Shown: positions 2,401 through 54,033 of the stretch, in pieces | Layout of the letters: each line of letters begins with the position of its first letter | How positions within the stretch are numbered: the first letter of the stretch is position 1 | Assembly: GCA_004123355.1 (NCBI GenBank) | Contig: SCHM01000004.1 | Location: 6,723,017 to 6,787,016 of the forward strand | Reading direction: 5' to 3' | From: Amphirosellinia nigrospora | Lineage: Eukaryota; Ascomycota; Sordariomycetes; Xylariales; Xylariaceae | DNA length: 64,000 nucleotides | Translations under genes and position numbers: made by a program | The notes under the pieces: model-generated | Seen by the model: only the letters and a program-made list of their open reading frames with translations | Databases searched by the model: none | Told to the model about the DNA's origin: nothing

Positions 2401-2487
2401 AACCCTATGCGTATTATAAAAAGGACTGGTCTGTGCGTATTGGCCCGTGCGCGTAGGGGTACGCGGGGCTAGGTTGATAGCCTCGTA

Positions 2488-3055
2488 CGCGTAGGTCTAC
2501 GTAGGTCTGCGCGCGTGTTCGTAGGTCTGTAGAGGTCTGCGTAGGTCTGCGCGGGCGCTCATAGGTCTGTAGAGGTCTGCGTAGGTCTGCGCGTGTGTTC
2601 GTAGGTCTGCAGAGGTCTGCGTAGGTCTGCGCGTGTGTTCGTAGGTCTGCAGAGGTCTGCGTAGGTCTGCGCGTGTGTTCGTAGGTCTGTAGAGGTCTGC
2701 GCGCGTGTTCGTAGGTCTACGTAGGTCTGCGCGTGTGTTCGTAGGTCTGCAGAGGTCTGCGTAGGTCTGCGCGTGTGTTCGTAGGTCTGCAGAGGTCTGC
2801 GTAGGTCTGCGCGTGTGTTCGTAGGTCTGTAGAGGTCTGCGCGCGTGTTCGTAGGTCTACGTAGGTCTGCGCGCGGTGTTCGTAGGTTTGTAGAGACCTG
2901 CGTAGACCTGCGTAGGTCTATGTGGCTAGATCGCCAGACCCTTCGCTAGACCCTCTGCCACTCCGTACGCGTAGGTCTGCGTAGGTCTGCGTAGGTCTGC
3001 GTGGGCGCTCGTAGGTCTGTAGAGGTCTGCGCGCGTGTTCGTAGGTCTGTAAGGG
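2488..3055 (-). repeat. Right tandem array, inverted relative to the left array
   Basis: The same 40-bp structure occurs in reverse complement (GTAGGTCTGC, AGAGGTCTGC, GTAGGTCTGC, GCGTGTGTTC), with about ten units. It is interrupted at roughly 2,895-2,965 by a short unrelated segment. The variant 10-mer GCGTGTGTTC replaces the left-arm partner ATGAGCGCCC, so the arms have homogenised separately. From 3,060 to 3,240 there is a second, more diverged repeat with a recurring ACGCTGTTT-like core. Confidence 0.85.
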
Positions 3056-3278
3056 CTACGAAGGCACGCAAAACGCGTGTTCGAGGGCTTCGTAGGCTCT
3101 AAGGGCATAAAAACACTGTTTGAGGCTGTTAGCATAAAATACGCTGTTTCGAGGCTATAGGTACCAAAAACGCTGTTTTCAAAGGCTATAAAAGCTCTAG
3201 ATATATAAGAATCGCTATTCCGAGCTAGAAAACATATTTTTAAATAATTAAATGCTAATTGTATTGATTTGCAAATAA

Positions 3279-23681: not shown

Positions 23682-23910
<229 letters not shown>

Positions 23911-23981
23911 ACAAAATTTTACTTATTAGGGCTATAATTTAAACTAATACCTTTTAATAAAGTCCTTAAAATAAGTATTAT

Positions 23982-24183
23982 TGTTAAATTTAGTAATATA
24001 TGTATGTATTAATTTATTTATATATTGTTGCTAAGCTTAATTAGGTATTTTTAATATAAAGTATTTAATAAGAATATTAGCTATTAGTTAAGCCTTAACG
24101 TACTGCTATATATATTAAGTAAATAACCTAATAATTTATTTAATAATATATAGCTAGATTATTAATTAGTACGTAATTTAATA
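23982..24183. repeat. Left LTR of element F
   Basis: It aligns over its full length with 53827-54028. Almost all differences are T here for C there, or A here for G there, showing that this copy is the more RIP-mutated. Confidence 0.8.
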
Positions 24184-26630
24184 TACTTTTTTAAAAAAGG
24201 TAGATTTAGTTGCTTTTTTTAGGTTTTAATAAGCAAGCTTATAATTTATATAAAATATAATAAATAAATTATTTATTAATATATTATATAATAAATACTT
24301 TATAACTTATATTTAATATAATATTATAAAGCTAATTATTACTATATAATTAAATAAATATAAATAATTATAAAGTAATAATAGTTAATTTATTATATAA
24401 ATATATTAGCCGCTTTTTTTTTTTTTTTTTTTTTTTTTTAGCTATTATAGTTTTAAAACTCGTAAATAATAATTACGTAACCCGTATACGCGTACTTTTT
24501 AAATAATAACTAAAATTAATATTAATTTATATATAGTTTAATTAAATAATTATAAGCTTTTAATATATATTAAAGTTATTTTAATAATATATATAATATT
24601 AAATATTAAGCTTAATATAATATATATTTAATTATTAATATATATAAAAAAACTTATTTATATTATTATTTTTTTTATAAATATTATTTATATATTTATA
24701 TAATTTATTACTAAATAACTAGAGGCCTTTTAATTAGGGGTAAAATGCTTAAGTTTTTAGGAACTACGTATTTAAGTTAGTAAGTAAATTATAGTTGCCG
24801 GTTATGCTAGTTTGCTTTTTTTTAATAAGTTACGTATAGTAGAACTTGCTATTTTATTTGATTTATTAACTGTAATATTTTGTTTTTTTGCGTAATTACG
24901 TAATTGCGTTATAAAAATATTCGGCTGTTTAGTTAATAGTAGTAATAGATTTATTTATAAATATAAGCGTTAGTATATAGTATTTTTATATATTTGTTTT
25001 ATTAATAGTAGCAATATATACTAAAGTTATATTATTGCTTTATAATTAAACTATAATTTTAAGCTATAAAGTAAAATTAAAGAGTTAGATATTATAACGA
25101 ATAATTAATTTTTATTTTAGGTAAAAAAACTTATACGATATTAAAATTTTTAAAACGATTTTTAACTTAAGTAAGATTAAAAAAGTTTTCTAATAAGTAT
25201 AAGTTGTTATTTTAAATTTTAAATATAATTATAAGCTATTTTAATTTTAAATATAACTATAAGCTATTTTTAATTTTAATATAATTACGAACTTTATATT
25301 TTAAGTAATAGCGCTATTATAAAATATATAATTTTTATAATATTAGATTTTTATTTTTCGAAAAAAGTTTAAACTTATCGATAAGTTTAAAAAAAACTTT
25401 ATAAATTAGTTAAAACGTTTAAAAAAAAAAACTTTTCGAAAAAGCTTAAACTTATTAATAATCCGAAAAAAACTTTATAAGCTAGCTAAAACGTTTAAAA
25501 AAAAAAACTTTTTAAAAAGCTTAAGCTTATTAATAAGTTTAAAAAAAACTTTATAAATTAGCTAAAATATTTAAAAAAAAAAACTCAAAAACTTAAAAAC
25601 GCGTTTATTATAATCAATTTAAAGCTTTAAAGTTTTCGGAAACTTAAAAATTACGTTTAAAATATTATAATAAAAAGCAAAAAATAAATAAAAATTATAA
25701 ACAAATACCCCGTAAAAAATACTGCTATATTTATTACGTTAATATAATAGCTAATTTATAGCAACTATAGTTTTTTTAAAAAATAGTTTAATAAAATTAT
25801 ATTTAAGCAAAGTTTATAATAATAATACTAGTTTATAACTTAAAAATAATAAATATTTAAATTAATATTAAATTAAAAAAAAAAAATAAAATAACTATAA
25901 TATAATTAAACAAATAATATTAAATAATTGTAATTATATAATATATAACTATTAAATAATCGGGTTTAATAGATATATAACTATTAAATAATTAAATTTA
26001 ATATAAAATTAAATTTAGTATAACTTATAATAAAAAAAATCAAAATAAGATTTTATAATTTATTTATATTATATTATTACTTTTAATATAAATATTTAAT
26101 TTTAAATTATTTTATTAAATTTATAATTATTTATATAATAAAGATAAATGCTAAAAACTAAGATATACGATAGTAAATAAAAATAGGAAGGTTTTTAATT
26201 CGGGTAAAAGAATTTCTTATTTAGGATATAAAAACAAAAAAATTTTTTATCGACAAGAAAACCTTTTTTTTACTTAGTCGTACTTTTTTTATAAAACTTA
26301 AGCATTCGGTAGTTTATTTTTATTTTTATTTTTATTTTTGTTTTCGGGCGAAAAAATATTTTTATTTATTATTTTTTGCTGCTTTTAGTTTACTTATTCG
26401 TATAGCTTTTTAGCCGGCCGATCTAAGTTATATTAAATATATAACGCTTATAAAGTTTCGCTACTATTTTTTATACGCTAGTTCGTTAAGCTTTAGCTAT
26501 TATTATTATAACTATTATTTTTAAAATTATTAGTTTAATATTAAACTTTTTAATAATTTTATTAATTCGGCTAAAAATAATCTAAATAATATTAGTTTTT
26601 ATTTTAGCTTTACTAAATATTTATTTATTA

Positions 26631-26661
<31 letters not shown>

Positions 26662-29600
26662 GCTGTTTTTTTTATTATTATTAGCCCGGTTTATCGCTTA
26701 TATAGTTATAAAAAATATAAATTATTATTATATTATTTTTATTTTAAGCCGGAATATTTATTAATTTACTACGAATTTTATACTTTTAATATATTAAAAG
26801 CGTTTTTATAAATTATTTTAATAATAATTATATAAAAATAATTAATAATAAAATATATTATTAACGTTATATTTTTAAGTATATTTATAAAAGCTATAAA
26901 TATTTTTGTTTTAATAATTAATAGTTTATTTAATAATTAATTTTAAAAATATTAAGCGGGCTTTTTATATTTATATAATATTTTAATCGAACGCGCTATT
27001 ATTTTTATTGCTATTTTTATTATATATTTTTCCGCTAAGCTTATAAGTTAGCTTGCTGCTTTATATATTATAGTATATATTTTATTAAAGCTTTTTAAAG
27101 CGGAAAAAAAATTAAAAAAAAAAAAAAAATAAACCAGTTAAAAATAAACTCCGGCTATTTAAATAATAAAATCGTGGGCTTTTTAAACAGTTGTTTTTTT
27201 TTTTTTTTTAAATTATATTAATAGCTTTTAAAGCTTTAAATAAAATTAATTAATTTTTTTATTTATATTATAAACATTTATAATTTAAATTTTAATATTT
27301 AATAAAAAAAATAAATATAATTAATTAATAGTTTATTTAGCTAATTTTTTGCTTATTAATTAGTTTTTAATTTTTTTAATATAAATAATTAGCTTATTAA
27401 TATTATTAGCTTAATAGATAATTTAGCTAGTTTTAATTATTAAAAAAACGTTATTTTATTAAATAAATAATATTTTAATAAAATTATTAATAATTATTTC
27501 GTTAATAAATATATATTATTATTAAAATTTTATTTTTAATTTTTTAGCATAATTAATAGTTATAAATATTAACGTATTATAGCTTAATATATAAAAAAGT
27601 TAATTTTTTAATAATTAGTTTTATAATTTATTAATTATTATATTAAATTTAAATATTATAATATAAATTATATTAAGCTTAATAATAAGCTTATTAATAT
27701 ATAGTTTTTTTAATAGCTTAAGCTAGCGCTAATAATTTAGCTTTTATAATAAATATTATAACTATATTTTATTTATTAGTTTTTTAATTTATAGTTTTAT
27801 TAAAAAACTTTATAATATAAACTTAAAAGCTTTTTTTATTAATAATATTATTAAATAATATATTATTAATTATTATAAAGTTGTTTTTATTATTAAATTA
27901 TAATATATAATATTATATAAACAATAATATAAAAAATATTTTATTTATAGCTTTATAATATTCGGAAAAAATTATAATTAAACTATAATAGTTTAAAATA
28001 ATAAATATTATATTTAAATATATAATAATAGCTATATAAAATTAAACTTTTTTATTAATATTATTATATATTTAAAATAAAGCTATTTTTTATAAAAATA
28101 GTTTATTTTTTTATTAAAATAATAATATATATTATAATGTTTATATTTTAAAGCTTAGCGATTTTTTTAATATAAAAAGCTTAAAATAATTATAATAATT
28201 ATTTTAGCTTATTTTAAATTATTTTTATTTTTAAAAACTATTATAAGTTTTCGTTTTTAATTAATTTATATTAAATTTTAATATAATAATTGCTATATTA
28301 ATTATTTTAAAGCTTTTAAAATAATATAATTATTATATTATTAATATAAATAAAAATAAATTTTTATTTTTTAAAATAATAAAGTTTATAAATATTAGTT
28401 TAAAACTAATTTTATTTAATAATTTTAAAAGCTTTTTTACTATAATAAAAAAATTCTTATAAACTATAAAAAACTCGTAATAATTTAACTATAATATTTA
28501 ATTTTGTATAATTAAAAAATATATATATATAAACTTTTTAATAAATTTTATATTAATAAAAATATTTATAATATTATATATTTAAATTTAAAATTAAATT
28601 TAATAATAATTATTATTAAAGTTTTAAACGATTTTTTATTAAAATATTTATATAAGTATTTTTTTATTATAATTTAGTTTTTAATTTTATATATTATTAA
28701 TTAAGCTTTATATTATATTATATATTATATTTATTAAATTTATATATATATTATATATAATTAAAAATTAATTTATTTAAAGTTAAGCTTTTAAGTATTT
28801 TTTTTTAAGTTTTTTTTTTAGTAGTTTTATAAATAAATATTTTATTTGTTTAAAATAATTTTTTAATAAATATAAATTAAGCTTTTTATACTATTTTAAA
28901 AATAAAAGTAAATTTTAATAATATATACGTTTTTTTTAAAATAATAATTTTTATAAATAAATTTTAAAATAGTATATTTTTTTTAAAGGATTTTTTTTTA
29001 TTTAGTTTATAAGTTTTTATAAAAATATTTTTTTTTTTTTCGCTTAAAGTTTTTATTAATATTTAATATTTACGATTAAATAAATTATAAATAATAAACT
29101 TTTATAAAAATATTTTTTTTATTTAAAGTTTTTATTAATATTTATTATTTATAATTAAATAAATAATAAATCGTAAGCTTTTATAAAAGTATTTTTTTAT
29201 AAATTAATATTGTTTTTTTTTATATTTAATATTTAAACTTAAATATTATAATATTTAAAAAAAACTTTTTAATAATTTAGCTTTTTATATTTTAATAGTT
29301 AATTTTTTATTTATAATAAATAATTTATATAATTAAAGTATATTAAAATATATAGTTTATAATTTAATAAATTAATTTAAAAATATAAGCTTATTTTAAT
29401 TTTAATATAAATAGCTAAATTAATTATAGTTTATATTTAAATTAATAAGTTTTAATTATATTATAGCTAAATTAAATAATATAATTTTTAATAATTTTAA
29501 TAATATAAATATATTAAAAAAATTTTTTAAATTAATATATAAGTAATTTTTAATATATAATTTTTTAAATTATTTTTTATAAGCTTATTATTATTTAAAT

Positions 29601-29715
29601 TAGTTTTTTATTTAGTTTAATTTAATAGTTTAATAAAGTTTTTAAATAATAAATCTTTTAGTTTATTATTTTTTATAAAAAACGTTAGTTATTATTTTAG
29701 CTATATTTTAATAAT

Positions 29716-30009
29716 AGTTACAGATCTGCAGGCTCTGGTGGCTGTGCCCCACCATTAGCCATAGCACCCGTAATTTCCACTTGCAGTAACTGCCACTTGC
29801 AGTGAATGCGTGACTGCCATTCGCAGTGAATGCAGTTGTAGTGAATGAAGGCAGGCACTGGTAGTAAATGCAGCTGCCCACGCGAGTATTTAAGCAGCTG
29901 CCTATATTGTAAACTTAGACCTTCCTTCCTTCCTACTCTATCTGTAGATTTTATATGCAATATACTATATAGCTGGAGCTTTGTCTCTTTGAGTGTGTGA
30001 AGCGTAACT
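29716..30009 (+). mobile_element. Solo LTR S1 of the D/A/B gypsy family, little mutated
   Basis: The 294-bp sequence starts AGTTACAGATCTGCAG and ends GAAGCGTAACT. It is flanked by a perfect ATAAT duplication (29711-29715 and 30010-30014), so it transposed as, or was reduced to, a single LTR. It keeps near-normal GC inside a block of extreme AT content. It carries CAGCTGC E-box-like motifs and an ACTTAGACCTTCCTTCC tract near its 3' part. Confidence 0.85.
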
Positions 30010-30791
30010 ATAATTAATTTAATTAATAAGTTTTTCGTAATTTTTTAGTTTATTTTTAAAAAATCGTTTTTAAACTTATTTTTATTATTATTAAAAATTT
30101 TTTTTATTAAAATAATATTTTTTATAATAATTATTTTTTTTATATAATAATTAAATTTAATAAATATTAAAAAATTAATATTTTATTAAATATTTTATTT
30201 AAGCTTTAAAGTTAAGTTTTTTATATTTTTTTTTTTTACGTTTTATAATAATAATTATAGCAAAAGTTATATATTTATTATATTAAATATAAAATATTTA
30301 AAGTTTATTTAAAACTTATATAGTTTTATAAATTATTAAAATATAAATAAACTTTTTATAAAAAGCTTTTTAGTTATTAATATAATAAAAGTTCGGTTAT
30401 ATAAATATATTATAATACGAACTATTTTAAACTATAAAAAAATAAAAAGCTTATATTTATTTTTTATTAAACTTATTTATTTTTAATATATTTTAATTCG
30501 TTTTATTTTTTATTAAAATTTTAAATATATAAAAAAAATTATAAATTTAATATTATAAATATTTTATATAAGTTTTATTAATTAAATAGTTTTATTTATA
30601 ATATTTATTAGTTTATTATTATATTTTATTATAATTATATTTTTTATAATAAAACTAAATATATATATATAGTTTTTAAAAACTATTTATATAATATTAG
30701 CGCGTTTATTATTAGTATAATAATTTTATATATATTTTAAATATTTATTAATAATTAATATTATTTTTTATAAACGATTATTTTTTATATT

Positions 30792-31081
30792 AGTTATGCT
30801 TCATACACTCGAAGAAATAAGGCTCTAGCATATATATATTGCATATAAAATCTATAGATAAGGTAGGAAGGAAGGAAGGTCTAAGTCTACGTTATAAGCA
30901 GCTGCTTAAATACTCGCGGGGCAGCTGCATTCACTGCCAGTGCCTGCCTTCATTCACTGCACTGCATTCACTGCGAATGGCAGTCACGCATTCACTGCGA
31001 GTGGCAGTTACTGCAAGTGGAGATTACGGGTGCTGTGGCTAGTGGTGGGGCACAGCCACTAGAGTCTGCAGATCCGTAACT
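30792..31081 (-). mobile_element. Solo LTR S2 of the same family, opposite orientation
   Basis: The 290-bp sequence is the reverse complement of the S1 type, beginning AGTTATGCTTC and ending GATCCGTAACT. It has its own perfect ATATT duplication (30787-30791 and 31082-31086). S1 and S2 are therefore independent insertions rather than the two ends of one element, although they sit 782 bp apart head to head. Confidence 0.85.
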
Positions 31082-32576
31082 ATATTAAAATTATTAAATT
31101 TATAAAAACCGTTATTAGCTAAATATTAGTTTTAAAAACTTTAAATTAAGCTTTTTATATTATTTTTTAATAAGCTTTTATAAAACTATAGTTAATATAT
31201 TTTATAGTTTTAATTTTATTATTTTTTTAAAAAATAATCGTTATTTTTTTAGTATATATTAATAGTTATTTTAAGTATTAATATTATTTATATATATTAG
31301 CTTATAATTAAAAACGTTTAATATAAAAGTTTAAAAAGTTTTTTTAAATATAAAAAATTTATTTTATTAAACGTATTAAAAATATTTTATAATAAATTAT
31401 TTATATTTAAGTTAATAAATATAAAGTTTTTTTTATTAATATTTTAAAAAATTTAAATTAAATTTATTTTTTTAATAAATATTTTTATAATTAAAAACTT
31501 ATAATAAAATAAAATTATAGCTATATTAAAACAAAAAAGCTATATTATAAAGCTTATAAACTATAAGTTTTTTTAATTTTTATATTTTAATATTAATTTT
31601 TTTATAGCTATATATTTTAATCGCGTTATTATTAGCTAATATTATATTTTTTAAATTAATATTTTAAAATTTAAAAAATAATTTATATGGTTAAAATATA
31701 TATATTAAACTTAAAGTTTATTATAATATAATTATAATAATATATATAATTTAATAAACTTTTTATTAATTATAAAAAGCTTATAATATATATTATTAAT
31801 AGCTATATAAATTAATTTTTATATTAATTTATAAATTAATCGTTAAATTTAACGTGTTTTTTTTTTACTAGTTTTTAATACGTTTTATTGTTTTTTTAAC
31901 GTTATTTTTAATAATTATTTATATATAAATAATATATTAAAATAAATATTAGTTTTAAAGTTTTTAAAGTAAAGCTTTAAAAAAATAAACTAATAGTTTA
32001 TAATTAAATATTTTTTATAATAAACTACGTAGTTTATTATATTAAAGTTTTTTTTTTTAGCTTTAATTTATATATTTATTTTAAAGCGTTTATAAAATAT
32101 TTAAAAAGTTTATTTTAAAATTATTATATTAGCTATTTAGTTAATTTTAAGCTATTTAAAAATATATTTTTCGCTTTTAATAAGTTTGCTTAAGTTAATT
32201 TTTATTAAAATAAACTAAATAATTTTATGTTTTTTTTGCTTATTAGTTTTATAAATAGCAAAAGTTTTTTTTTAATAATTTTTATAAATATTTATATTAT
32301 ATTTAATATAAAAGCTTTATATTAAAATTTAATAACTATTATTTAATAATTTAAAATATTATTTAAAATTTTATTATTAAGTTCTTTTTAATAATATAGC
32401 TTAAAATAAATTAATATTATATAAAGCTTTTTTAGATTAATTATAAGTTTAAACGATTTAATAATATTAATTTTTTAATATTTGCTTTAATAATTTTATT
32501 TAATTATTTATTAGTTTATTTAATAAAGTTTTTATAAGTTTTTTTATTATAAAACTAATAAACGTTTTATAATTAT

Positions 32577-32866
32577 AGTTATACTTTATATATTCGAAAA
32601 AACAAAGCTTTAGTATATATAGTATATTATATATAAAATCTACAAAAAAAAAAAAAAAAAAAAAGTCTAAGTTTATATTATAAGCAGCTGTTTAAATACT
32701 TGCAAAGTAGTTATATTCACTACTAATATTTGTTTTTATTTATTATATTATATTTATTATAAATAATAGTTATATATTTACTATAAATAATAGTTATTAT
32801 AAATAAAAATTATAATACTATAGCTAATAATAAAGCATAGCTATTAAAGCCTATAAATTTATAACT
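32577..32866 (-). repeat. 3' LTR of element D, heavily RIPped
   Basis: This is the most AT-shifted of the family's LTRs. A poly-A stretch replaces the purine-rich GGAAGGAAGG region seen in S2. Confidence 0.8.
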
Positions 32867-33892
32867 ATTTTTCTTTCGAAAAAAAAAATAATTTAATTAA
32901 GGTTAAAATCGTAACTATTTTTTAGCAAAAAAAAAATCGCCTCGGGTTTTTATTAATATAATTTTTTATAAAGCTTTTATACTATTAAATTATTATTTTT
33001 TTTTTTATATATTGCTTAAAATTTTTTTGCTTAATATAATATTTAAAATATATATAATATTTATATTTTATTTATACGTTTTTTTTTATATTAAATTTTT
33101 TTTATACTATAATTTTATTATTATTTAAATATAATTTATTAAATTTATTTTTTGCGCTATTTTTAGCTATATTTATAATTTTATTAAAAATTTAGCTAAA
33201 TTAAGTTTATATTATAAAACTTTTAATATTTTATATTATTTTTAAAATTTTTTATTAAATATTATATATTATTAAAGTTTTAATTTTTTTAATTTATTTA
33301 ATATTATAACTTTTAATAATAAAATTAAAATATTTATATTTTTTTAATAATAAAATTTTTTTATTTTTAAGTTTATTATTTTTTTTTTTAAATTTTTTGC
33401 TTTTTAACTTAATAATAAATTATTAAAATATTTTTATAATCGATTTATATAATTATAATTTAATATTTTTTAAATTAAAAAAATATTTAGTATAAAAATA
33501 TTTTTGTTTTTTTTGTATATTTTAAACTTTTATTATATTAAAAAAATCTAGCTTATTTAATAAACGGTTTATTTTTAAAACTATTTTTTTTTAAAATTAA
33601 TATATGTTTTTTATATTAAAATTAAATTTATATTAATTTTTATTAGTTTAATTAATTAATATTTTTAAATATACTATAGTTTTTTTAATTAATTTAATAA
33701 ATTATATTATTTTTTTTATTTTTTTTAATATATTTATTTAAATCTTTTTTTTTTTTTTAAAGCTTTTAAACTTTTATTTATAGTCCGATTTTTTAATTAA
33801 AATAAATAATATTAAAAACTTATTTTAATTTTATAAAATAATAATTTTATTAAAATATAAAATTTAAGCTTAACGTAATTTATAATAATATA

Positions 33893-34666
33893 ACATATTA
33901 TACAACCATCTTGGCCACATAACCATCCTGGCCACTTAGGCTTGGCATTTTACTAAAATTATAATAACTTTACGAACTAAGCTTAATCGGGAAATAATTT
34001 ATAGGTTTAAATATATAACATATTTAGATATAAATAATTTTTTTTAATTTTTTACGCTAGCTTAATAAGGTTATAAACCCGGTTTTAAAGTAAGCTAAAA
34101 ATAAAGCTAAATAAAATCTTATTAGTACTAGCGTATAATTTTACTAAAATTTTGAGAAAATTAAAATTAATTTATTATGTCTTTATATTATATATATTTT
34201 TTCTGAATTTTTAACGTAGGTTTAGATTTTTTTTTATTTTTAAAGTATAAAAAAATGTAAAAATTAAATAAAAAAAATTGAAAAAAATTAAAAAATAATA
34301 AAAAAATAATAAATTTATATTTTAAAATAAAAAAATATTAACCTAGCTTAGAAAATTCAAAAAATATATATAGTATAAAAAAATATAATAATCTAATTTT
34401 AATTTTTCAAAATTTTAAAAATTATACGCTAGTACTAACTAAGGATTTATTTAGCTTTATTTTAGCTTACTTTAAAAACCGGGTTTATAACCTTATTAAG
34501 CTAGCGTAAAAATTAAAAAATTATATTCATATACTAAATATATTATATATTAAAACTATAAATTATTTCCCGATTAAGCTTAGTTCCGTAAAGTTATTTA
34601 ATTTTAATAAAATGCCAAGCTTAAGTGCCAGGATGGTTGTGTGGCCAGGATGGTTGTGTGGTATGT
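33893..34666. mobile_element. Palindromic MITE E inserted in D
   Basis: The 774-bp element has terminal repeats ACATACCACACAACC (right) and ACATATTATACAACC (left). TA duplications lie at 33891-33892 and 34667-34668. The arms pair over almost their full length: for example AAGCTTAATCGGGAAATAA on the left is matched in reverse at about 34,561-34,583, and ACGCTAGCTTAATAAGG by its complement near 34,490. Near each end is a doubled AACCATCCTGGCCAC motif. It has no coding capacity. The TA target and foldback form suggest a Tc1/mariner-related MITE. It is different from the 1850-3368 foldback. Confidence 0.85.
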
Positions 34667-36109
34667 TATGTTTAATTAATTATTTTAATAATATTTATAT
34701 ATAATATAATTTTTAATTAATATATTTATTTATAATTTTATTTATTTTATAATTTTATAATATTTATAATAATTAGCGTATATTTATATTATTAATTTAT
34801 ATAGTTTTATTTATAAAAGCAAAAATAAACTAAATCTACGGTTTAATATTATAATTATAAATATTTTAAAAACTTAGAAAAGTTTTTATAAATATTTAAT
34901 AACGTTTTTATAGTTATTTTATAATATAAATATAATTTATATTATTTATTAAACGTTTATTATAATTAATATATTATTATATTTATATTTGTTTTTAAAT
35001 ATTTATTTAAAATTAATAATAAAAAATACTATATATATTTAAATATTAAAAAAAATATAAATTTATTAAAAGTTTATTTTTAAATATTTTAATAAGTTTA
35101 TATTTATATAGTTTATTATATAATAATTATAATTTTATTTAGTTTAAGCTATTAATAACGTTTAATAATAAATTTATATGTTTTATTTTATTAAAATATA
35201 TAATAATATTTTATAATAGTTTTTTTAATAAAACGTATTTTTAAATATAAAAATTAAAAATAATTAAACGTTTATAAAATATAGTTAATTTGTTTAGTTT
35301 TTATAAGTTTTTTAGTTTATTATTTTTTATTTATTAATAATAAATTTTTATATTTATATTTTTATAGTTTTTTTTAAAAATTTATTAATTAATTATAATT
35401 TATAAAAATATTTAATTTATTATATATTTTAATAAAACTTATTTAATATAATTTTATTTATATAAAAATTAATTATATTATATTATTTATTAGTTAAATA
35501 TTATAAAATAACATTATGTTTTTTTTTAGTTTTTTATATTATTAGGTTTTTTATTTTTTAATAAAATATTAATATATTATTTTTTTTAAAATAATATAAT
35601 ATTAAAAAATTATATTTTTAAAAAAAGTTAATTATTTAGCTTATTTTAAATTAAATATTATTTATTAAAAAACTTTAATATTTAATTATTAATAAATATT
35701 AAAAAAGCTTATTATAACTATTAATTAGTTTAAATTTTTATTTTTTAAAATATAATATAATTATTATTTTTTTATTAAATATTATAATTTAATTTAATAT
35801 TATAAAATATTTTTAAAAAAATTATTAAAATATTAAGTTTATTATATAATTATAATAATACGCTAAAGCTAATATTATTAAAAAAATCGGTTTTAATTTT
35901 TATTAATAAATTATAATTAAAATATTTTAATAAAAAAAAATATATTAAAGCTTTTTTAAATTAATAAAATAATTTTTTATATTTTTTAGTTTATATAAAA
36001 ATATATTTTTTATATTAATTAGTTTAAAAATATAATATATATAACTTTAAATATTAATAAAATTATAATAAAAATTATAAAATTTTAAAAAAATTATATT
36101 TTTAACCGA

Positions 36110-36401
36110 AGTTACAGATCTACAAGCTCTAGTAGCTATGCCCTACTACTAGCTATAGCACCTGTAATTTTTACTTGCAATAATTACTACTCGCAGTAAA
36201 TACATAACTGTTATTCGCAATAAATACAGTGTAATAAATAAAGGCAAGCATTAGTAATAAATATAGCTGCCCTATAAGTATTTAAACAGCTGCTTATAAT
36301 ATAAACTTAGACTTTTTTTTTTTTTTACTTTATTTATAGATTTTATATATAATATATTTATATATTAGAGCTTTATTTTTTCGAATATATAAAGCGTAAC
36401 T
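36110..36401 (+). repeat. 5' LTR of element A
   Basis: It runs AGTTACAGATCTACAAGC to AAAGCGTAACT. It is moderately RIP-shifted and retains several CAG/CTG sites. Confidence 0.85.
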
Positions 36402-42400: not shown

Positions 42401-42534
42401 TAATATAATAATTTAATAGTATAAAAACTTTATAAAAAGTTATATTAATAAAAACCCGAAGCGATTTTTTTTTTTACTAAAAAGCAATCGTAATTTCAAC
42501 TTTAGTTAAATTATTTTTTTTTCAAAAAAAAAAT

Positions 42535-42823
42535 AGTTATAAATCTACAAACTTTAGTAGCTATACTTTATTATTAGCTATAATACCCATAATCTCTACT
42601 TATAATAACTACTACTTATAATAAATACATAATTACTATTCGCAATAAATATAGTACAATAAATAAAAGCAAGCATTAGTAAAAATATAGCTACCCCGCG
42701 AGTATTTAAACAATTACTTATAACGTAAACTTAGACCTTCTTTCTTTTTTATATTTATAGATTTTATATATAATATACCATATATATTAAAGCTTTGTTT
42801 TTTCGAGTATATAAAGCGTAACT
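42535..42823 (+). repeat. 3' LTR of element A
   Basis: It runs AGTTATAAATCTACAAAC to AAAGCGTAACT. It is more AT-shifted than its 5' partner in its first half. Confidence 0.85.
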
Positions 42824-44316
42824 ACTGATATAAAAATTTTTTTTTAATATAATATTAATTTTAATAAAATTTTTTAAATTTTTTTAATATTAATAATATA
42901 ACTTAAAAACTTAGTTTAATAATATAAAATTTAAACTTTTTTAAATTAATTTATAATTTAGCTTAAATTAATTATTTTAGTATATAATATATATAAATAA
43001 TATATTTTTTTTATTTTTAAATAAATAATAATATTATTAATATATATACTATAAAATCGTTTAAAAATTAAATAATATATTAAAATATTATTAAAATATT
43101 AAAAATCTATTAATTAAACTAAATAATAATATTAATAATTAATACGTATTATATTTTATATAAAATATTATATAATTTTTATTTTTAAATAATATATAAA
43201 TATAATTAAATATTTATTATATATTAAATTAGGTAAAAATTTTCGCTTTAATAATATAAGCTAAAATTTTTTAATAAAAAAAAACAAATATTAGTTTTTT
43301 TTTATAATTTTATTTAGTTATAATAATTTATATAAAAATAAAGCCTATTATTTGTTTTTTTTAAATAAAATAAATATATTATATAAAATATTATTAAGCT
43401 CGATAAAGTTTTTATATAAATTTTCGATTAAAAATTCTTATATAATTTTTAATTTATTTAATAATATTTTATATAAAAACTATAATTTAAATTAGCTTTA
43501 AATTTATTTTTAAAAAACTTTATTTTATAGTTTATTTAAAATAATATAATAATAATATATTAAAGTTTATTTATTAAAAATATATACTAGGTTTTAATAT
43601 TTTTTAAGTATTTTTTTTCGCGTTTTTTATTTTAATTTTTTATTTTTTTTTAAAAAATTATTTTTATTTTTTTTAATTTTTTAATTATTTTATTAACTTT
43701 ATTAATATTAATAATATAAACGTTTTTTACCTGGTTTTTTTTATTATTATACTAAAAATAGTTATATTTAAGCTAAATATTTTAATTATTAATTTTTTTT
43801 TATATTAGTTAATATTATTTTATTTTATTAATAAAAATCTTTTTATTAAATTTTAAATAAAAATTAAAGTTATATTTTTTATAAAAAAATATAGTTTATA
43901 TTTTTAAAATAAGTTTTAAAAAACTAATTAAATATTATTTATTTTATTTTATTAAAGTTTTTTATATTAAATCGTTATATTTAAAATAAATATTTTTAGT
44001 TTTATATTATTTAAATATTATTTTATTTTTTTTTATTATTATTAACGCTATATTTTTTCGATTTTAAAATTATAGTTTTATTGATTAATATCGGGTTAAT
44101 AAACTAAATATTATAGCTATATATTATTTTATTTATTATTAAATAATATTTTATATTATAATTAAAAAATAATTAAAATAAAAATATTAAATAATTTTGC
44201 TAATAATTTAATAAATATTATAATATTTAAACTATAATTTATTTAAAATTATATTATAAATTAAATTAATAATAATTATAAGCTTATTTTTAAAAAGTTT
44301 TTTATATATTTTTAAT

Positions 44317-44608
44317 AGTTATGGATCTGCAGGCTTTGGTAGCTGTGCCCTACCACTAGCTATAGCACCCGTAATCTCTACTTATAGTAACTACTACTCG
44401 TAGTAAATGCGTGACTGCTATTCGCAGTAAATATAGTACAGTAAATAAAAGCAAGCACTAGTAGTAAATACAGCTGCCCCGCGGGTATTTAAGCAGCTGC
44501 TTATAATATAAACTTAAACCTTTTTTTTTTTCTATTTTATTTATAGATTTTATATATAATATATTATATATATTAAAGCTTTATTTTTTAAATATATAAA
44601 ACGTAACT
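44317..44608 (+). repeat. 5' LTR of element B
   Basis: It starts AGTTATGGATCTGCAGGC, is close to S1 in sequence, and is only mildly RIP-shifted. It ends AAACGTAACT. Confidence 0.85.
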
Positions 44609-47600
44609 ATTTATAAATTATTTAAAATATTATAAAGTATTAGAACTATTTTTATAATATTTTTTAATTAAACTAAATAATTAATTTAACTTAAAAATAT
44701 TAAAATATTTTTTAAAAAAAAACTAAAATAATAAACGCGTATAGCTATACGTACTAAAGCTTTTATTAATATTTTAGATTTATTTGCTTTAAATATTTAA
44801 AACGATAAACTTTTTATAACGAAATTTTAGCAAATAATAAAAAAATATATTTATTTTAGCTTTTTTAATTATAAAAACTATAATAATAAAATATAAAAGT
44901 TAATTATTTTTAACTAATTTAATATAATAGTTTATAGTATTATTAATAACTATATATTTAAAAAATAAAAATTCGATATAAATATTACCGGTTTTAATTA
45001 AATAGTTTAATATTTAGCTAGTAATTATATAAAACTATAAATAAAAAGCGCTAAGTTTAGCTTTTATTTTAAACTAATAATATATTATAATAAAATAATT
45101 TAGTTTAGCTTTAATAAAAATATAACTAAACTAATATAAATAATATATATAAAAACTTTATTATTATTTTTTAAAATAAAAATATATGCTTTTTTAATAA
45201 CGGCTTATTATTATTTATTATTAATTTATATATATTTGCTAAAAAATTAAACAAAATAAAAAAATTCTATTTAATTAAATAAAAAAATAAAATAAAATTA
45301 TTATTTTTTATAATAAAATATATATTATATTAATATATATTATTATATTTTTTAATTTATAACTAAAAATAATTTTAGCTAATAATAAGCCGATTAATAA
45401 ACTATTAATTGATTATTAAATAAACTATAAAAAATAACTAAATAATATAATTATTTAAAATAACCTAAATATTTCGAACTAATAAATAATTAATTTATTA
45501 AATTATTATAAAATAACTTTTATTTATTAAATAATAAAAAAAATAACTAATATACGGTTAAAATATTAATATTTATTTTTTATAATAATATAACTAAAAA
45601 TAAACTTAAATTTAAAATATAAATTTAAAACTAATAAAATCGCTTTAAATTTAACGCTAATTAGTTTTATAATAATATAGCTAAAATAGCTAATATTAAA
45701 ATTTATATTAAAAGCTATATAACTAATAATTTTTTTTTTATTTTTTATTTAATTATTTTAATATATTTATTAATTTAAAAACTATTTTAAAATATTTTAA
45801 AAAGATTTATATTAACGTTAACTATAATAAAAAAGCTAAAATTAATTTCTAATTATTTAGTTTTAATTAATATATATTAGCTAAATTTTTTAAGTTTTAA
45901 ACTATTTTTATTTATTTAATTAATAAAACTAAACTTAATAAAACTAAATAAAAAAAAAATTTAAAAATAAATTATTTTTTCGATTAATAATTAAAGCTAT
46001 ATTAAAATATTTAAAAAAAAATATTAATTTTAATATTTATGCGAAATATTATTTTTAAATAGCTTATTATTTAATAATAACCGATTATAAACAAAATAAA
46101 ACTTATAAAAAAAAAAACGTAAAATTTAATTATAATTTTTATTTTTTTTTTATTTAAATAACTTTTTATTTATTTTAAAACTAAATAATAATAATAATAG
46201 CAATTTTGCTTAACTATTTAAGCTTAACGCTAATAAAATATAATAATTAATTTTTAATAATAAATATTTTAATTATTATTAATAAAAATATATTTAAAAA
46301 AATATTTTTTAAAAAATTAAACTTTAGCAAATAAAAAAGCTTAGGTTATTATTATCCTAGCTATATATAATATATCGGATATTAAGCCGGCTAATATATA
46401 AAAAAACAAATTTATAATAAGCACGGAAAAAAAAATAACTTTAAAAAAAATAGCTTTTTTTTTAAAAAATATTATTAATTATAAAATAAATTTAATAAAA
46501 AAATATTTAAACAAAAAACCTTTATTATATATTTATACTTTATATAATAATAAATTTTTTTTAATTATAAATAATTTTTTTAAAATATAAAAATAAATAT
46601 ATATATAAATATCTTAATTAAATTATTAAACTATTTAATTTTATTATTATTATAGATTTTTGCTAAAAAGTTATAATAATATAACAAAAAAAATATTAAT
46701 CGGGCTTTTTATTATTATTAAAATATATAAAAAAACTTTTAAAAATAAACTTATAATTATTATTAATTTAATTTATAATTAATTTTAAATATATTTATAA
46801 TTATATATTATATTAAATTATTAATAAAACTATTTAATATTTTTATTTTAGCTATTTTTTAATTATAATATAAAATATTATTTAGTAATAAATAAAGTAA
46901 ATATATAGCTATAATATTTAGCTTATTAATTTAACGCTAATTAATAAAACTATAACTTTAAAATTAAAAAACGTAACGTTAATAATAATAAAAAAACAAA
47001 ATAATATTTAAATAATATAAAATTAAAAATATTTATTTTAAAGCATAATAATCCGGTGCAAAAAAATTTTAACAAAATAAAATAAGCAATATTTAATTAA
47101 CTTTTACTAAAACTTGTTCTTAAAAAACGTAAGCTATATTTTTTTATAAAATAATTTTAATTTTTATTTTATTTAAAAATAAAAAATCTTTATTAAATAA
47201 AACAAAATTATTATAATATAAAAACTAACGATTAAAATATTTAGCTTAAATATAATTATTTTTAAATAATAATAAAAAAAAACTAGGTAAAAAACGTTTA
47301 TATTATTAGTATTAATAAAATTAATAAAATAATTAAAAAATTAAAAAAAATAAAAACGATTTTTAGAAAAAAAAACAAAAAATTAAAATAAAAAATATAA
47401 AAAAAATATTTAAAAAATATTAAAACTTAGTACGCGCTTTTAGCTAAATAAACTCCGATATATTATTATTATATTATTTATAAATAAATTATAAAATAAA
47501 ATTTTTTAAAAATAAGTTTAAAGCTAATTTAAATTATAGCTTTTTATATAAAATATTATTAAATAAATTAAAAGCTATATAAAAATTTTTAGTTAAAAAT

Positions 47601-50600
47601 TTATATAAAAGTTTTATCGAGCTTAATAATATTTTATATAATATATTTATTTTATTTATAAAAAAATAAATAATAGGTTTTATTTTTATATAAATTATTA
47701 TAAACTAAATAAAATTATAAAAAAAACTAGTATTTATTTTTTTTTATTAAAAAACTTTAGCTTATATTATTAAACAAAAATTTTATTTAATTTAATATAT
47801 AATAAATATTTAATTATATTTATATACTATTTAAAAATAAAATTATATAACGTTTTATATAAAATATAGTATATATTAATTGCTAGTTTTATTATTTAAT
47901 TTTATTAACGGACTTTTAACGTTTTAATAATATATTAATAATATATTATTTAACTTTTTAAATAATTTTTTATAGCGTTTATGTTAATAATATTATTATT
48001 TATTCGAAAATAATAAAAAAATATATTATTTATATATATTACGTACTAAAATAATTAATTTAAGCTAGATTATAAATTAACCTAAAAAAATCTAAATTTT
48101 ATATTATTAAAACTAAGTTTTTAAATTATATTATTAGTATTAAAAAAATTTAAATAAACTTTACTAAAATTAACGTTATATTAAAATAAAAAACTTTTAT
48201 ATTAGTTAAAAATATATAATTTTTTTTAAAATTTTATAATTTTATTATAATTTTATTAATGTTTAAAATCGCGTTATTATGCTTTTAAACCGATTAATAT
48301 AAAAAAGCATACTTTTTATATAAACTAAAAAATATAAAAAATTATTTTATTAATTTAAAAAAGTTTTAATACGTTTTTTTTTACTAAAATATTTTAACTA
48401 TAATTTATTAAAAAATTAAAACCGATTTTTTAATAATATTAGTTTTAATATATTATTATAATTATATATAAAACTTAATATTTTATATATATTTTTTAAA
48501 AATATTTTATAATATTAAATTAAACTATAATATTTATAATAAAAAATTATTAATAATTATATTATATTTTAAAAAATAAAAACTTAAACTAATTAATAGC
48601 TATAATAAACTTTTTTTAATATTTATTAATAATTAAATATTAAAGTTTTTTAACGAAAAATAATATTTTAATTTAAAATAAACTAAATAAATTAACTTTT
48701 TTTTAAAATATAATTTTTTAATATTATATTATTTTAAAAAAAATATATTAACTAATGTTTTATTATAAAAATAAAAAAACCTAATATAAAAAGCTAAAAA
48801 AAAACATATTATTTTATAATATTTTAGCCGGTAAATAATATAATATAATTAATTTTTATATAAATAAAGTTATATTAAATAAATTTTATTAAAATATAAT
48901 AAATTAAATATTTTTATAAAACTATAATTAATTAAGCAAATTTTTAAAAAAACCGTAAAAATATAAATATAAAAATTTATTACTAACGAATAAAAAATAA
49001 TAAACTAAAAAACTTATAAAAATTAAAAAATAAATTAACTATATTTTATAAACGTTTAATTATTTTTAATTTTTATATTTAAAAATATATTTATTAAAAA
49101 AATATATTAAATATTTATTATATACTTTAATAAAATAAAACATATAAACTTATTACCGAACGTTATTAATAGCTTAAGCTAAATAAAAATATAATTATTA
49201 TATAATAAATTATATAAAATATAAACTTATTAAAATATTTAAAAATAAAACTTTTAGTAAATTTATATTTTTTTAATATTTAAATATATATAGCGCTATT
49301 TTATTATTATTTTAAATAAATATTTAAAAATAAATATAAATATAATAACGCTTTAATTATAATAAACTATTTAAATAAATAAGCATAAACTATATTTTAT
49401 ATTATAAAAATAACTATAAAAAACGCTATTAAAATATACTACAAAAAACTTTTTTAAGTTTTTAAATATTTATAACCGTAATATTAAACCGTAAACTTTA
49501 GTTTATTTTTATTTTTATAAATAAACTATATAAACTAATAAATATAAAATATATATTAATTATATAAAATATTATAAAATTATAAAATAAATAAAAATTA
49601 TAAATAAATATATTAACTAAAAATTATAACTATATATAAATTATTATTAAAATAATTAGTTTAAACGTATATTTATTATAAATTACGTTTAAACGTTAAT
49701 TTTTTATGCTTTAATAAAGTTATTATTTTATAAAATTAAAATAAATTTTTTAATATTATTTTTTTAACTAAAAAAATCGGACCGCTAATAAAAAACTATA
49801 AAAGCTTTTTAAAAAAAAAAAACGATTCGAATAAATATATAAAAAAAAATAAAAAAAATAATATAGTTTATCAAATTAGCTAAAAAAAACTTATAATATA
49901 TTTAAAATATATAATTAATTAAGCTAATAAAAATCGATATAAACTTAATTTTAATATAAAAAACTATATATTAATTTTAAAAAAAAAACAGTTTTAAAAA
50001 ATAAACCGCTTATTAAATAAACTAAACTTTTTTATAATAAATAAAAATTTAAAATACGCAAAAAATAAAAACATTTTTATATTAAAATTTTTTTAATTTA
50101 AAAAATATTAAATTATTATTATATAAATCGACTATAAAAATACTTTAATAATTTATTATTAGGTTAAAAAACAAAAAATTTAAAAAAAAAAATAATAAAA
50201 CTTAAAAATAAAAAAAAGTTTATTATTAAAAAATATAAATATTTTAATTTTATTATTAAAAGTTATAATATTAAATAAATTAAAAAAATTAAAACTTTAA
50301 TAATATATAATATTTAATAAAAAACTTTAAAAATAGTATAAAAGTACTAAAAAACTTTTATAATATAAACTTTAATTTAGTTAAACTTTTAATAAAACTA
50401 TAAATATAGCTAGAAACGGCGTAAAAAAACAAATTTAATAAGCTATATTTAAATAATAATAAAACTATAATATAAAAAAAAAATAACGTAAAAAAAAACG
50501 TATAAATAAAAAAATATATAAATATTATATATACTTAAATATTATATTAAATAAAAAAACCTTAAATAATATATAAAAAACTAATATAATAATTTAACGG

Positions 50601-50714
50601 TATAAAAGCTTTATAAAAAATTATATTAATAAAAACCTAAAGCGATTTTTTTTTCGCTAAAAAGCAGTCATAACTTTAACCCCAGTTAAATTATTTTTTT
50701 TTTCGAAAAAAAAT

Positions 50715-51006
50715 AATTATAAATCTACAAGCTTTAATAACTATACTTTACTACTAACTATAATACTTATAATCTTTACTTATAATAATTATTACTTATA
50801 GTAAATACGTAATTACTATTCGTAGTAAATATAATACAATAAATAAAAACAAGCACTAGTAGTAAATATAGCTGCCCTATAAGTATTTAAACAGCTGCTT
50901 ATAATATAAACTTAGACCTTTTTTTTTCCTACTTTATCTATAGATTTTATATATAATATACTATATATATTAAAGCCTTGTCTTTTTAAGTATGTAAAGC
51001 GTAACT
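50715..51006 (+). repeat. 3' LTR of element B
   Basis: It starts AATTATAAATCTACAAGC and ends AAAGCGTAACT. It is clearly more AT-shifted than the 5' LTR of the same element. Confidence 0.85.
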
Positions 51007-53011
51007 TTAATAATTTCTTTTATAAATTATTAATTTATATTTATATATATATTTTTATATTTTTAAAAAAATTATTTATAGTTAAAAAAATCTATTATTA
51101 TATAAAATATAAATATTAATAAAAGTTTTCCGCCTAAATATTTTTTTATTAAATTTTTATAATTAATAATATTTTTTAAAATATTTCTTTTAAAAAAAAA
51201 AGCTATTTTTTTTAAAGTTATTTTTTTTTTTTATATTTATTATAAGTTTATTTTTTTATATATTAGCCGGCTTAATATCCGATATATTATATATAACTAA
51301 AATAGCAATAACTTAAGCTTTTTTATTTAAAGTTTAATTTTTTAAAAAATATTTTTATTATTAATAATTAAAACATTTATTATTAAAAATTAATTATTAT
51401 ATTTTATTAGCGTTAAATTTAAATAATTAAATAAAATTATTATTATTATTATTATTTAGTTTTAAAATAAAACGAAAAATTATTTAAATAAAAAAAAAAA
51501 AAAAAAAATCATAATAATAAACTTTTATATTTTTTTTATAAATTTTATTTTATTTATAATTAATTACTATTAAATAATAAATTATTTAAAAATTAATATT
51601 TTTTTTAAATATTTTAATATAGCTTTAATTATTAATTAAAAAAATAGCTTATTTTTAAATTTTTTTTTTATTTAGTTTTATTAAATCTAGTTTTATTAGC
51701 TAAACAAACAAAAATAATTTAAAACTTAAAAAATTTAGCTAATATATACTAATTAAAACTAAATAATTAAAAATTAGCTTTAGCTTTTTTATTATAATTA
51801 ATATCGATATAAATTTTTTCGAAATATTTTAAAATAGTTTTTAAATTAATAAATACGTTAAAATAATTAAATAAAAATAAAAAAAAATTATTAATTATAT
51901 AGCTTTTAATATAAGTTTTAATATTAACTATTTTAATTATATTATTATAAAATTAATTAGCGTTAAATTTAAAGCAATTTTATATAGTTTAAATTTATAT
52001 TTTAAATTTAAGTTTATTTTTAGTTATATTATTATAAAAAATAAATATTAATATTTTAGCTATATATTAGCTATTTTTTTATTATTTAATAAAATAAAAA
52101 TTATTTTATAATAATTTAATAAATTAATTATTTATTAGTTCGAAATATTTAAGTTATTTTAAGCGTAATTATATTATTTAGTTATTTTTTATAGTTTATT
52201 TAATAATTAATTAATAATTTGTTAATCGGCTTATTATTAACTAAAATTATTTTTAATTATAAATTAAAAAATATTAGTAGTATATATTAATATAATATAT
52301 GTTTTATTATAAAAAATAACAATTTTATTTTATTTTTTGCTTAATTAAACAAAACTTTATTTTATTTATTTAATTTTTAGCGAATATATATAAATTAATA
52401 ATAAAATAATAATAAATTATTATTAAAAAAAATATATTTTTATTTTTTAAAAAATAGTAATAAATTTTATATATATATTTATACCGGTTTAATTTATATT
52501 TTATTAAAGCTAAGCTAAATTATTTTATTATAATATATTATTAGTTTAAAATAAAAACTAAGCTTAACGTTTTTTATTTATAGTTTTATATAATCGCTAA
52601 TTAAATATTAAACTATTTAATTAAAACTAGTAATATTTATATTAAATTTTTATTTTTTAAATATATAGTTATTAATAATATTATAAAACTATTATATTAA
52701 ATTAATTAAAAATAGTTAGCTTTTATAACTTATTATTATAATTTTTACGTAGTTTAAAAAGCTAAAATAAATATATTTTTTTATTATTTATTAAAGTTTT
52801 ATTATAAAAAGCTTATTATTTCGAATATTCGAAACAAATAAGTTTAAAATATTAATAAAAGCTTTAAATATATAGCCGCACGCACTTATTATTTTAGTTT
52901 TTTTTTAAAAAATATTTTAATATTTTTAAATTAAATTAATCGTTTAATTTAGTTAAAAAATATTATAAAAATAATCCTAATATTTTATAATGTTTTAAAT
53001 AATCTATAAAT

Positions 53012-53295
53012 AATTATACTTTATATATTCAAAAAAACAAAGCTCTAGCATATATAATATATTATATAAATCTACAAATAAAAAAAAAAAAAGTTTAAAT
53101 CTACGTTATAAGCAGCTGCTTAAATACTTACGGGGCAGCTATATTCACTACTAATGCCTGCCTTTATTCACTACACTATATTCACTGCGAATAGCAGTTA
53201 CGCATTCACTACAAGTAGCAGTTACTACAAGTAAAGATTACAGGTGCTATGGCTAATAGTAAGGCATAGCTACTAAAGCTTGCAAATCTATAACT
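53012..53295 (-). repeat. 5' LTR of element D (minus strand)
   Basis: This LTR is mildly RIP-shifted and keeps AAGCAGCTGCTTAAATACT and CATTCACTAC motifs. It is followed by the ATTAT duplication at 53296. Confidence 0.85.
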
Positions 53296-53826
53296 ATTAT
53301 TTTAATATTTATATTTAAAAACTTAGCTTATTATTTTATTAAGTTTTTTTAAATTATTATATTATTAATTAAAAGTTTAATAAACTTTTATATAAATTAA
53401 TTTATAGTTCGAATTTATTATTTTTTATATTTATTTAAAAAGCTTAATAATTTTATTTTAATAAATATTATATTATTTTAAAATAATATTATAACGTTAT
53501 TAAATACTAATATATAAAGTTCGTTTATTTATTATTAGATTTATTAGTATAATAATCGTTAAATTAATATTTATAAATATAAAAAAATTAAATATATTTA
53601 ATATATTTAGTTTTATAAGCTAAAAAATCGCGTTTTTTTTAGTTATAAATATTCTTAAAGATTTTTTAAAATTATAAACATTATAAAGTTTTATTTTTAT
53701 AATAAAAAGTTTTCTAATAAATTAAAAGTTATAATAATTAATATAAATATAATAATAATTTTTTAGTACGTATTTTTATAGCTTTATTTTTTAATAAAAT
53801 ATAAAAATTATAATAAGATTTTTAAT

Positions 53827-54028
53827 TATTAAATTTAGTAATATATATATATATTAATTTATTATATATCGCTACTAAGCTTAATTAAGGCATTTCTAGT
53901 ATAAAGTACTTAACGGGAGCACTAGCTACTAGTTAAGCCCTAGCGCACTGCCACATATATTAAATAAGCAACCTGGTGATCTATTTAGTAATGTATAGCT
54001 AGATCACCAGTTGGTGCGTAATCCAACA
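53827..54028. repeat. Right LTR of element F, largely unmutated
   Basis: This is the 202-bp partner of 23982-24183. Its outer two-thirds have near-normal GC. It contains a hairpin-forming inverted repeat, CTGGTGATCTA at 53973-53983 and TAGATCACCAG at 54000-54010. It ends CCAACA before the ACTAT duplication. Confidence 0.8.
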
Positions 54029-54033
54029 ACTAT

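What the first reader, a model, noticed from the sequence alone, without database searches (positions are those of the whole stretch)
23977..54033. Complete five-level history of nested retroelements readable from target duplications
F (202-bp LTRs) was hit by D, S1 and S2; D was then hit by A, B and MITE E. Each insertion has its own duplication: F ACTAT/ATTAT, S1 ATAAT, S2 ATATT, D ATTAT, A ACCGA/ACTGA, B TTAAT, E TA. Excising A, B and E rejoins D into a collinear element of about 6.5 kb, and excising D, S1 and S2 leaves about 8.7 kb for F. This explains almost the whole 30-kb AT-rich block with seven insertion events.
Basis: seen in the sequence. Interest (0 to 1): 0.75.

Follow-up and report, generated by a model that had tools for sequence, protein, structure and literature searches.

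The report
Nested, mutation-riddled fungal jumping genes
A 30-kb AT-rich block in what looks like a fungal chromosome is a pile of transposons inserted into one another and then crippled by repeat-directed mutation; the history read from the sequence is mostly right but missed one insertion, and such piles are ordinary in fungi.

Summary
The nest is real. F (202-bp LTRs, 23982-54028) belongs to a repeat family; its other copies are uninterrupted where S1, S2 and D sit. A, B and D are one Ty3/gypsy chromovirus family; E is a palindromic TA-flanked MITE. Corrections: (1) an eighth insertion was missed: G, 24719-26304, with Helitron-like ends, absent from 27 of 29 other F copies examined; F is about 7.1 kb, not 8.7. 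(2) The nest has three tiers (F; D, S1, S2, G; A, B, E), not five. (3) D is not fully collinear: at the B site it lacks 84-99 bp that A, B and 18 of 20 other copies have. [quoted passage not shown] Solo LTRs S1 and S2 escaped (93% identical to a preserved LTR, against 64-78% for LTRs of A, B, D). RIP-degenerated transposon mosaics are known in fungi; this is an ordinary case with minor points of interest.

The parts
23982..54028 (.). F: interrupted LTR element of a repeat family (28 other copies over nearly the whole first inner stretch, one partial); orientation and class not determined
   Evidence: LTR comparison; copies; collinear paralog L089
23982..24183 (.). F left LTR, 202 bp, begins TG; duplication ATTAT at 23977-23981
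53827..54028 (.). F right LTR, 202 bp, ends CA; duplication ACTAT at 54029-54033; 31% G+C against 16% in the left LTR
24719..26304 (-). G: missed eighth insertion, about 1.59 kb, Helitron-like and without apparent coding sequence; CTAG end on the left, TGCTTAAG end on the right, asymmetric inverted repeat
29716..30009 (+). S1: solo LTR (294 bp) of the A/B/D family, 46% G+C, duplication ATAAT
30792..31081 (-). S2: solo LTR (290 bp) of the same family, 47% G+C, duplication ATATT
32577..53295 (-). D: chromovirus copy split by A, B and E; duplication ATTAT on both sides; 84-99 bp missing at the B site
33893..34666 (.). E: palindromic MITE, 774 bp, TA duplication
36110..42823 (+). A: full-length chromovirus copy, heavily decayed; duplication ACCGA/ACTGA; similarity to RT at 39399-39970, RNase H at about 40144-40536, integrase core at 41122-41385, chromodomain at about 42085-42195
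44317..51006 (+). B: full-length chromovirus copy, heavily decayed; duplication TTAAT; similarity to RT at 47559-48147

Best explanation
An LTR element F entered GC-normal DNA near a TTA microsatellite. A Helitron-like element (G) and three members of one chromovirus family (D, and the ancestors of solo LTRs S1 and S2) then inserted into F; D in turn took two more members of that family (A, B) and a MITE (E). Shown: the containment, the duplications, the family relations. Inferred: repeat-induced point mutation (RIP) drove the long elements to 5-15% G+C (a preserved chromovirus copy has about 52%); the two solo LTRs stayed at 46-47%, probably because about 290 bp is too short to be a RIP target alone; and the chromodomain on the family's integrase may explain repeated landing in RIP-made heterochromatin (not tested).
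For: Uninterrupted F copies: S1 site in 9 of 11 distinct copies, S2 and D sites in 11 of 11 (12 loci, of which L055 and L089 are one copy); G site adjacent within 30 bases in 27 of 29 (from coordinates). Ends of G of the same type in 12 loci in different surroundings. A/B/D pieces collinear apart from the B site. Domains RVT_1, RT_RNaseH, Integrase_H2C2, rve and Chromo in a preserved family copy, with partial matches inside A, B and D. Changes against that copy: A 1242 C>T/G>A, 9 reverse, 41 transversions; B 1361, 8, 21. Retained G/C: D 0.10, 0.093 and 0.13 in three of its four pieces, A 0.223, B 0.163. (CpA+TpG)/(ApC+GpT) is 0.03-0.8 in the decayed parts against 1.1 in the flanks.
Against: On one of three shared stretches D (0.131) is only slightly more decayed than A (0.171) and B (0.187); the alignments behind these numbers are at 51-59% identity and cover only the 3' half. 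The loss at the B site is not explained by a single clean insertion. In 2 of 11 F copies the S1 site was not found. TpA/ApT is only about 1.1-1.6 in the block, not striking as a RIP index. No reads, second strain or chromatin data were available.
Confidence: 0.93

Rival explanations
1. B did not arrive by one clean insertion: either two related elements landed about 97 bp apart in the same orientation and recombined, or integration removed the target, so that the TTAAT pair is not a true target duplication.
For: 84-99 bp present in A, B and 18 of 20 other copies are missing from D exactly at the B junction; a chance 5-mer match in this block is not negligible, 1.5%.
Against: The missing stretch is bounded by two TTTAATAAT words, so slippage between them before or after a normal insertion of B suffices; one other copy, L087, has lost about 86 bp at the same place without an insertion there, so the stretch is prone to deletion.
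Confidence: 0.25
2. The repeated arrangement is partly an assembly artefact in AT-rich DNA.
For: A, B and D are 80-89% alike and lie side by side, the kind of place where assemblers err.
Against: The junctions carry duplications and match uninterrupted copies; A and B differ at 12.8% of aligned sites, too much for a false duplication of one sequence.
Confidence: 0.04
3. AT-richness reflects general mutation bias or age, not RIP.
For: Non-functional DNA drifts to AT in many genomes (general knowledge).
Against: Solo LTRs S1 and S2 sit in the same DNA at 46-47% G+C and are 93% identical to a preserved LTR; G+C returns to about 50% at the edges of F.
Confidence: 0.03

Closest known systems
RIP-degenerated transposon mosaics in AT-isochores of Leptosphaeria maculans (PMC4210507, passages seen)
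   Same: Large AT-rich blocks made of truncated, RIP-degenerated transposons alternating with GC-equilibrated DNA
   Different: There 33.9% G+C on average; here 5-15% in the long elements; here one block is resolved insertion by insertion
Ty3/gypsy chromoviruses (A, B, D, S1, S2)
   Same: RT, RNase H, integrase and chromodomain in that order, 5-bp duplications, paired LTRs
   Different: LTRs begin AG and end CT (AGTTAC..GTAACT) instead of the usual TG..CA (usual ends recalled)
Helitron2-like elements with asymmetric terminal inverted repeats, FoHeli of Fusarium oxysporum (PMC5148889, passages seen)
   Same: Inverted repeat at the 5' tip whose partner lies 26-32 bases from the 3' tip (20-40 bp upstream in FoHeli), 5' start TGC, no target duplication seen
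   Different: Short (about 1.6 kb), no stop-free frame over 62 aa in the window copy, 3' end CTAG before a host T as in canonical Helitrons
Foldback MITEs with TA duplication (Tc1/mariner type; label recalled)
   Same: TA on both sides, terminal inverted repeats, many copies
   Different: The element is self-complementary over nearly its whole 0.8 kb

Membership tests
LTR retrotransposon (F) | paired direct LTRs, TG..CA, target duplication | tested here: met
   TG kept on the left LTR, CA on the right; duplication with one C/T difference
LTR retrotransposon (F) | gag-pol domains | tested here: inconclusive
   no match of the chromovirus RT/RNase H/integrase frames to F pieces or to 12 loci of 11 other F copies at E<=1; none of 32 RVT_1 and 16 RVT_2 matches, compared by eye, lay in the F copies known here; all F copies read are heavily decayed
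Ty3/gypsy chromovirus (A, B, D, S) | RT before integrase, chromodomain at the C-terminus | tested here: met
   preserved family copy: RVT_1, RT_RNaseH, Integrase_H2C2, rve, Chromo; partial matches in A, B, D
Ty3/gypsy chromovirus (A, B, D, S) | LTR ends TG..CA (usual for LTR elements generally, not specific to chromoviruses) | tested here: not met
   AGTTAC..GTAACT in S1 and 11 further LTR loci; domain order is taken as decisive
Helitron / Helitron2 (G) | CTRR end before a host T, no target duplication | tested here: met
   CTAG in 7 of 12 loci, TTAG in 4, TTAA in 1; host T in 12 of 12
Helitron / Helitron2 (G) | hairpin near the 3' end | tested here: inconclusive
   6 of 12 loci fold at -5.3 to -6.6 kcal/mol (RNA energies, no shuffles), 6 weakly, the window copy among them; window copy not better than shuffles (z -0.34)
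Helitron / Helitron2 (G) | asymmetric terminal inverted repeat | tested here: met
   best local match of 9-20 bp, partner 26-32 bases from the 3' tip, in 12 of 12 (no shuffled control; in L064 the two ends read belong to two neighbouring copies)
Helitron / Helitron2 (G) | Rep-helicase protein in a partner element | tested here: inconclusive
   PF14214 found nothing, but it also rang in none of the 14 control genomes
TA-inserting MITE (E) | inverted repeats and TA duplication | tested here: met
   12 loci, the window's own included: TA on the right in 12 of 12, on the left in 11 of 12 as aligned, the twelfth shifted by one base
TA-inserting MITE (E) | matching transposase in the genome | not tested
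   no search made
RIP | C>T/G>A in long repeats | tested here: met
RIP | dependence on sexual cycle and RIP genes | not testable with these tools
   needs crosses; RIP genes were not searched for

The most novel reading that the evidence does not exclude
Deletion outruns mutation: in this organism chromovirus copies often collapse to a solo LTR by LTR-LTR recombination before RIP reaches them, leaving near-pristine LTRs (S1, S2 and at least 7 others with perfect duplications, of which S1, S2 and 4 of the 7 lie in DNA of roughly 3-13% G+C). The ratio of pristine solo LTRs to decayed full copies would then measure the race between recombination and RIP.
Probability: 0.3. Interest if true: 0.45.

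Novelty: new member of a known kind. Interest (0 to 1): 0.22.

Why it matters
It is a clean worked example of how an AT-rich block grows: insertion into older repeats, followed by RIP-like decay. The mix of RIP-saturated full elements and nearly untouched solo LTRs in one stretch offers a natural comparison of element length with RIP exposure. It does not change what is known about such blocks.

Tried and rejected
Considered and dropped: 'five levels' (only three tiers of containment were found). A left boundary of G at 24496, suggested by matches, was rejected because the F copy L089 aligns through 24718 and the 12 loci of G agree on the end at 24719. F as a gypsy or Copia element could not be shown. 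Dating by LTR divergence was not attempted, because the LTR differences are mainly C>T/G>A. The Helitron Rep search with PF14214 was uninformative. Folding of the 3' end of the window copy of G gave no significant hairpin. Stop-to-stop frames of A and F were too short to be useful. Paper searches were used as listings only, apart from PMC4210507 (listed, passages).

Full report
Setting. The window lies in a 48.1-Mb genome in 11 contigs. G+C falls from about 50% on both sides to roughly 8-16% in 2-kb steps between about 25 and 53 kb.

F. The two 202-bp LTRs (23982-24183, 53827-54028) share 160 of 200 aligned bases when 202 and 201 bp are compared, score 188 against a maximum of 69 in 300 random pairs from the block. 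The left one begins TG, the right one ends CA, and they are flanked by ATTAT and ACTAT. F is a repeat family: 41 matches in 40 scored of 100 candidates for the right LTR, the window's own included; 37 of 2184 candidates scored for one inner stretch; 28 other copies over nearly the whole first inner stretch plus one partial (40 of 1312 candidates scored). One copy on the same contig, L089, is collinear with the F pieces of the window (23982-24720, 26319-29714, 30011-30797, 31081-32610, 53303-54028 in order; the ends run slightly into inserts) and is about 7.22 kb long. Subtracting the inserts by hand gives about 7.14 kb for F here, not 8.7 kb.

Uninterrupted sites. I aligned the two flanks of each insertion separately with F copies: 12 loci, of which L055 and L089 are one copy, so 11 distinct. 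At S1, 9 of 11 show the flanks overlapping by exactly the 5-bp duplication; in L049 and L053 the site was not found. At S2 all 11 are uninterrupted (overlap 2 in 10 and 4 in one, with flank ends that I had set 3 bases short of the full duplication). At D all 11 are uninterrupted (overlap 5 in 7, 8-9 in 4, taken as slips of the local alignment). These copies are paralogs, not a sister strain.

The missed insertion. The first 3 kb of F interior matched 42 other places over 1.0-2.0 kb (40 of 1787 candidates scored), 39 of them starting no further left than window 24493 and ending by 26329. The F copy L089 runs straight through 24718 and resumes at about 26305. The stretch between, G, recurs with the same two ends in 11 other loci that I read: read on the minus strand it starts TGCTT (9 of 12, the window included; the other three look decayed), ends CTAG (7 of 12; TTAG in 4, TTAA in 1, as decay would give), is followed by host T in 12 of 12, and carries an inverted repeat of its 5' tip 26-32 bases from its 3' tip. 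A 3' hairpin is clear in 6 of 12 and weak in the others, the window copy among them. In L064 the two ends read belong to neighbouring copies. In 27 of 29 F copies the two sides of the G site are adjacent within 30 bases after allowing for unmatched query ends; one has -31 and one is cut off. This fits a nonautonomous Helitron; the asymmetric inverted repeat is a mark of Helitron2-type elements such as FoHeli (PMC5148889, passages). No coding partner was found, but the search was uninformative.

A, B, D, S1, S2. A and B are collinear end to end, 87.2% of 6592 aligned bases. D, on the other strand, is in four pieces that map in order on A and B. Where A and E interrupt D, the flanks overlap by 5 and 2 bp on both A and B. 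Where B interrupts D, they do not meet: 84-99 bp present in A, B and 18 of 20 other copies are missing. Of the other two, L087 lacks about 86 bp at the same place without an insertion there and L088 matched poorly. The stretch is bounded by TTTAATAAT on both sides. The simplest account is slippage between these words before or after an ordinary insertion of B; a two-element recombination or a target-deleting integration is not excluded. A preserved family copy has RT, RNase H, integrase zinc finger, integrase core and chromodomain in that order, which places the family among the Ty3/gypsy chromoviruses; parts of the same frames match inside A, B and D. The LTRs begin AG and end CT in S1 and in 11 further LTR loci, which is unusual.

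Decay and order. Against the preserved copy (L090, 3' half only), A shows 1242 C>T/G>A changes, 9 reverse and 41 transversions; B 1361, 8 and 21; three of the four D pieces 284/3/10, 652/0/52 and 437/3/40. G/C retained: A 0.223, B 0.163, D 0.10, 0.093, 0.13. On shared columns D is lower than both A and B in all three pieces, clearly in two (0.100 against 0.247 and 0.167; 0.097 against 0.231 and 0.140) and slightly in the third (0.131 against 0.171 and 0.187). The alignments are at 51-59% identity, so single columns are uncertain. This supports D being older than A and B without using the duplications. S1 and S2 are 93.5% and 92.8% identical to the preserved LTR, while the six LTRs of A, B and D are 64-78%. 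Of 11 further LTR loci most like S1, two are the ends of one full copy with duplication TAAAT; 7 of the other 9 have perfect 5-bp duplications and so are solo LTRs, at 48-50% G+C; L037 and L044 have none. Four of the 7 have flanks of 3-13% G+C on both sides, the other three mixed flanks of 23-47%. These are the best matches to S1 among 190 candidates (40 scored), so the sample leans to undecayed LTRs. A solo LTR of about 290 bp may simply be too short for RIP (length limit recalled, not tested); for it to be pristine, the partner LTR and interior must have gone before RIP acted. Frequent loss of direct repeats around the time of RIP is known to me for Neurospora from memory only; the search for it listed three papers that I did not read.

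E. E is 774 bp, TA-flanked, and self-complementary over nearly its length: the window copy matches its own reverse complement at 83% over 786 bp, and most of the listed copies match on both strands at the same place; arms.

Literature. Blocks of truncated, RIP-degenerated transposons are described for Leptosphaeria maculans (PMC4210507, passages), and RIP-mutated gypsy elements and gypsy solo LTRs for Aspergillus flavus (PMC9910759, passages). A search for papers holding 'repeat-induced point mutation', 'solo LTR' and 'nested' listed one, and without 'nested' eight; I read passages of one of the eight only, so I make no claim that escape of solo LTRs from RIP is unpublished.

Verdict. The thing itself looks ordinary for a RIP-active fungus.

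Noticed in passing
29716-30009, 30792-31081; L034-L036, L038-L040, L043: Solo LTRs of the chromovirus family keep 46-50% G+C, S1, S2 and 4 of 7 others inside DNA of roughly 3-13% G+C, while the LTRs of A, B and D are at 64-78% identity to a preserved LTR.
   Followed up: partly
44316/51007 (B site in D); L087: 84-99 bp missing exactly at an insertion site, and an 86-bp loss at the same place in another copy without an insertion: a deletion-prone stretch next to TTTAATAAT words.
   Followed up: partly
36110-36115 and 42818-42823; L033-L044: LTRs that begin AG and end CT (AGTTAC..GTAACT) instead of TG..CA.
   Followed up: partly
33893-34666; L022-L032: The MITE family is self-complementary over nearly its whole 0.8 kb, with dozens of matches in the genome.
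   Followed up: partly
L041, L042, L090: One family copy is hardly touched by RIP (LTR G+C 49%, uninterrupted RT frame) although its outer flanks are AT-rich (6-11% G+C).
   Followed up: partly
2107-3064: GC-rich 40-bp tandem repeats (2107-2391) followed by an array of their reverse complement (2490-2912), forming inverted repeats outside the block.
   Followed up: no
23682-23911: About 230 bp of TTA microsatellite just outside the left end of F.
   Followed up: no
53827-54028: The right LTR of F keeps much more G+C (31% against 16% in the left LTR), mostly in its outer part: an edge gradient of decay.
   Followed up: no
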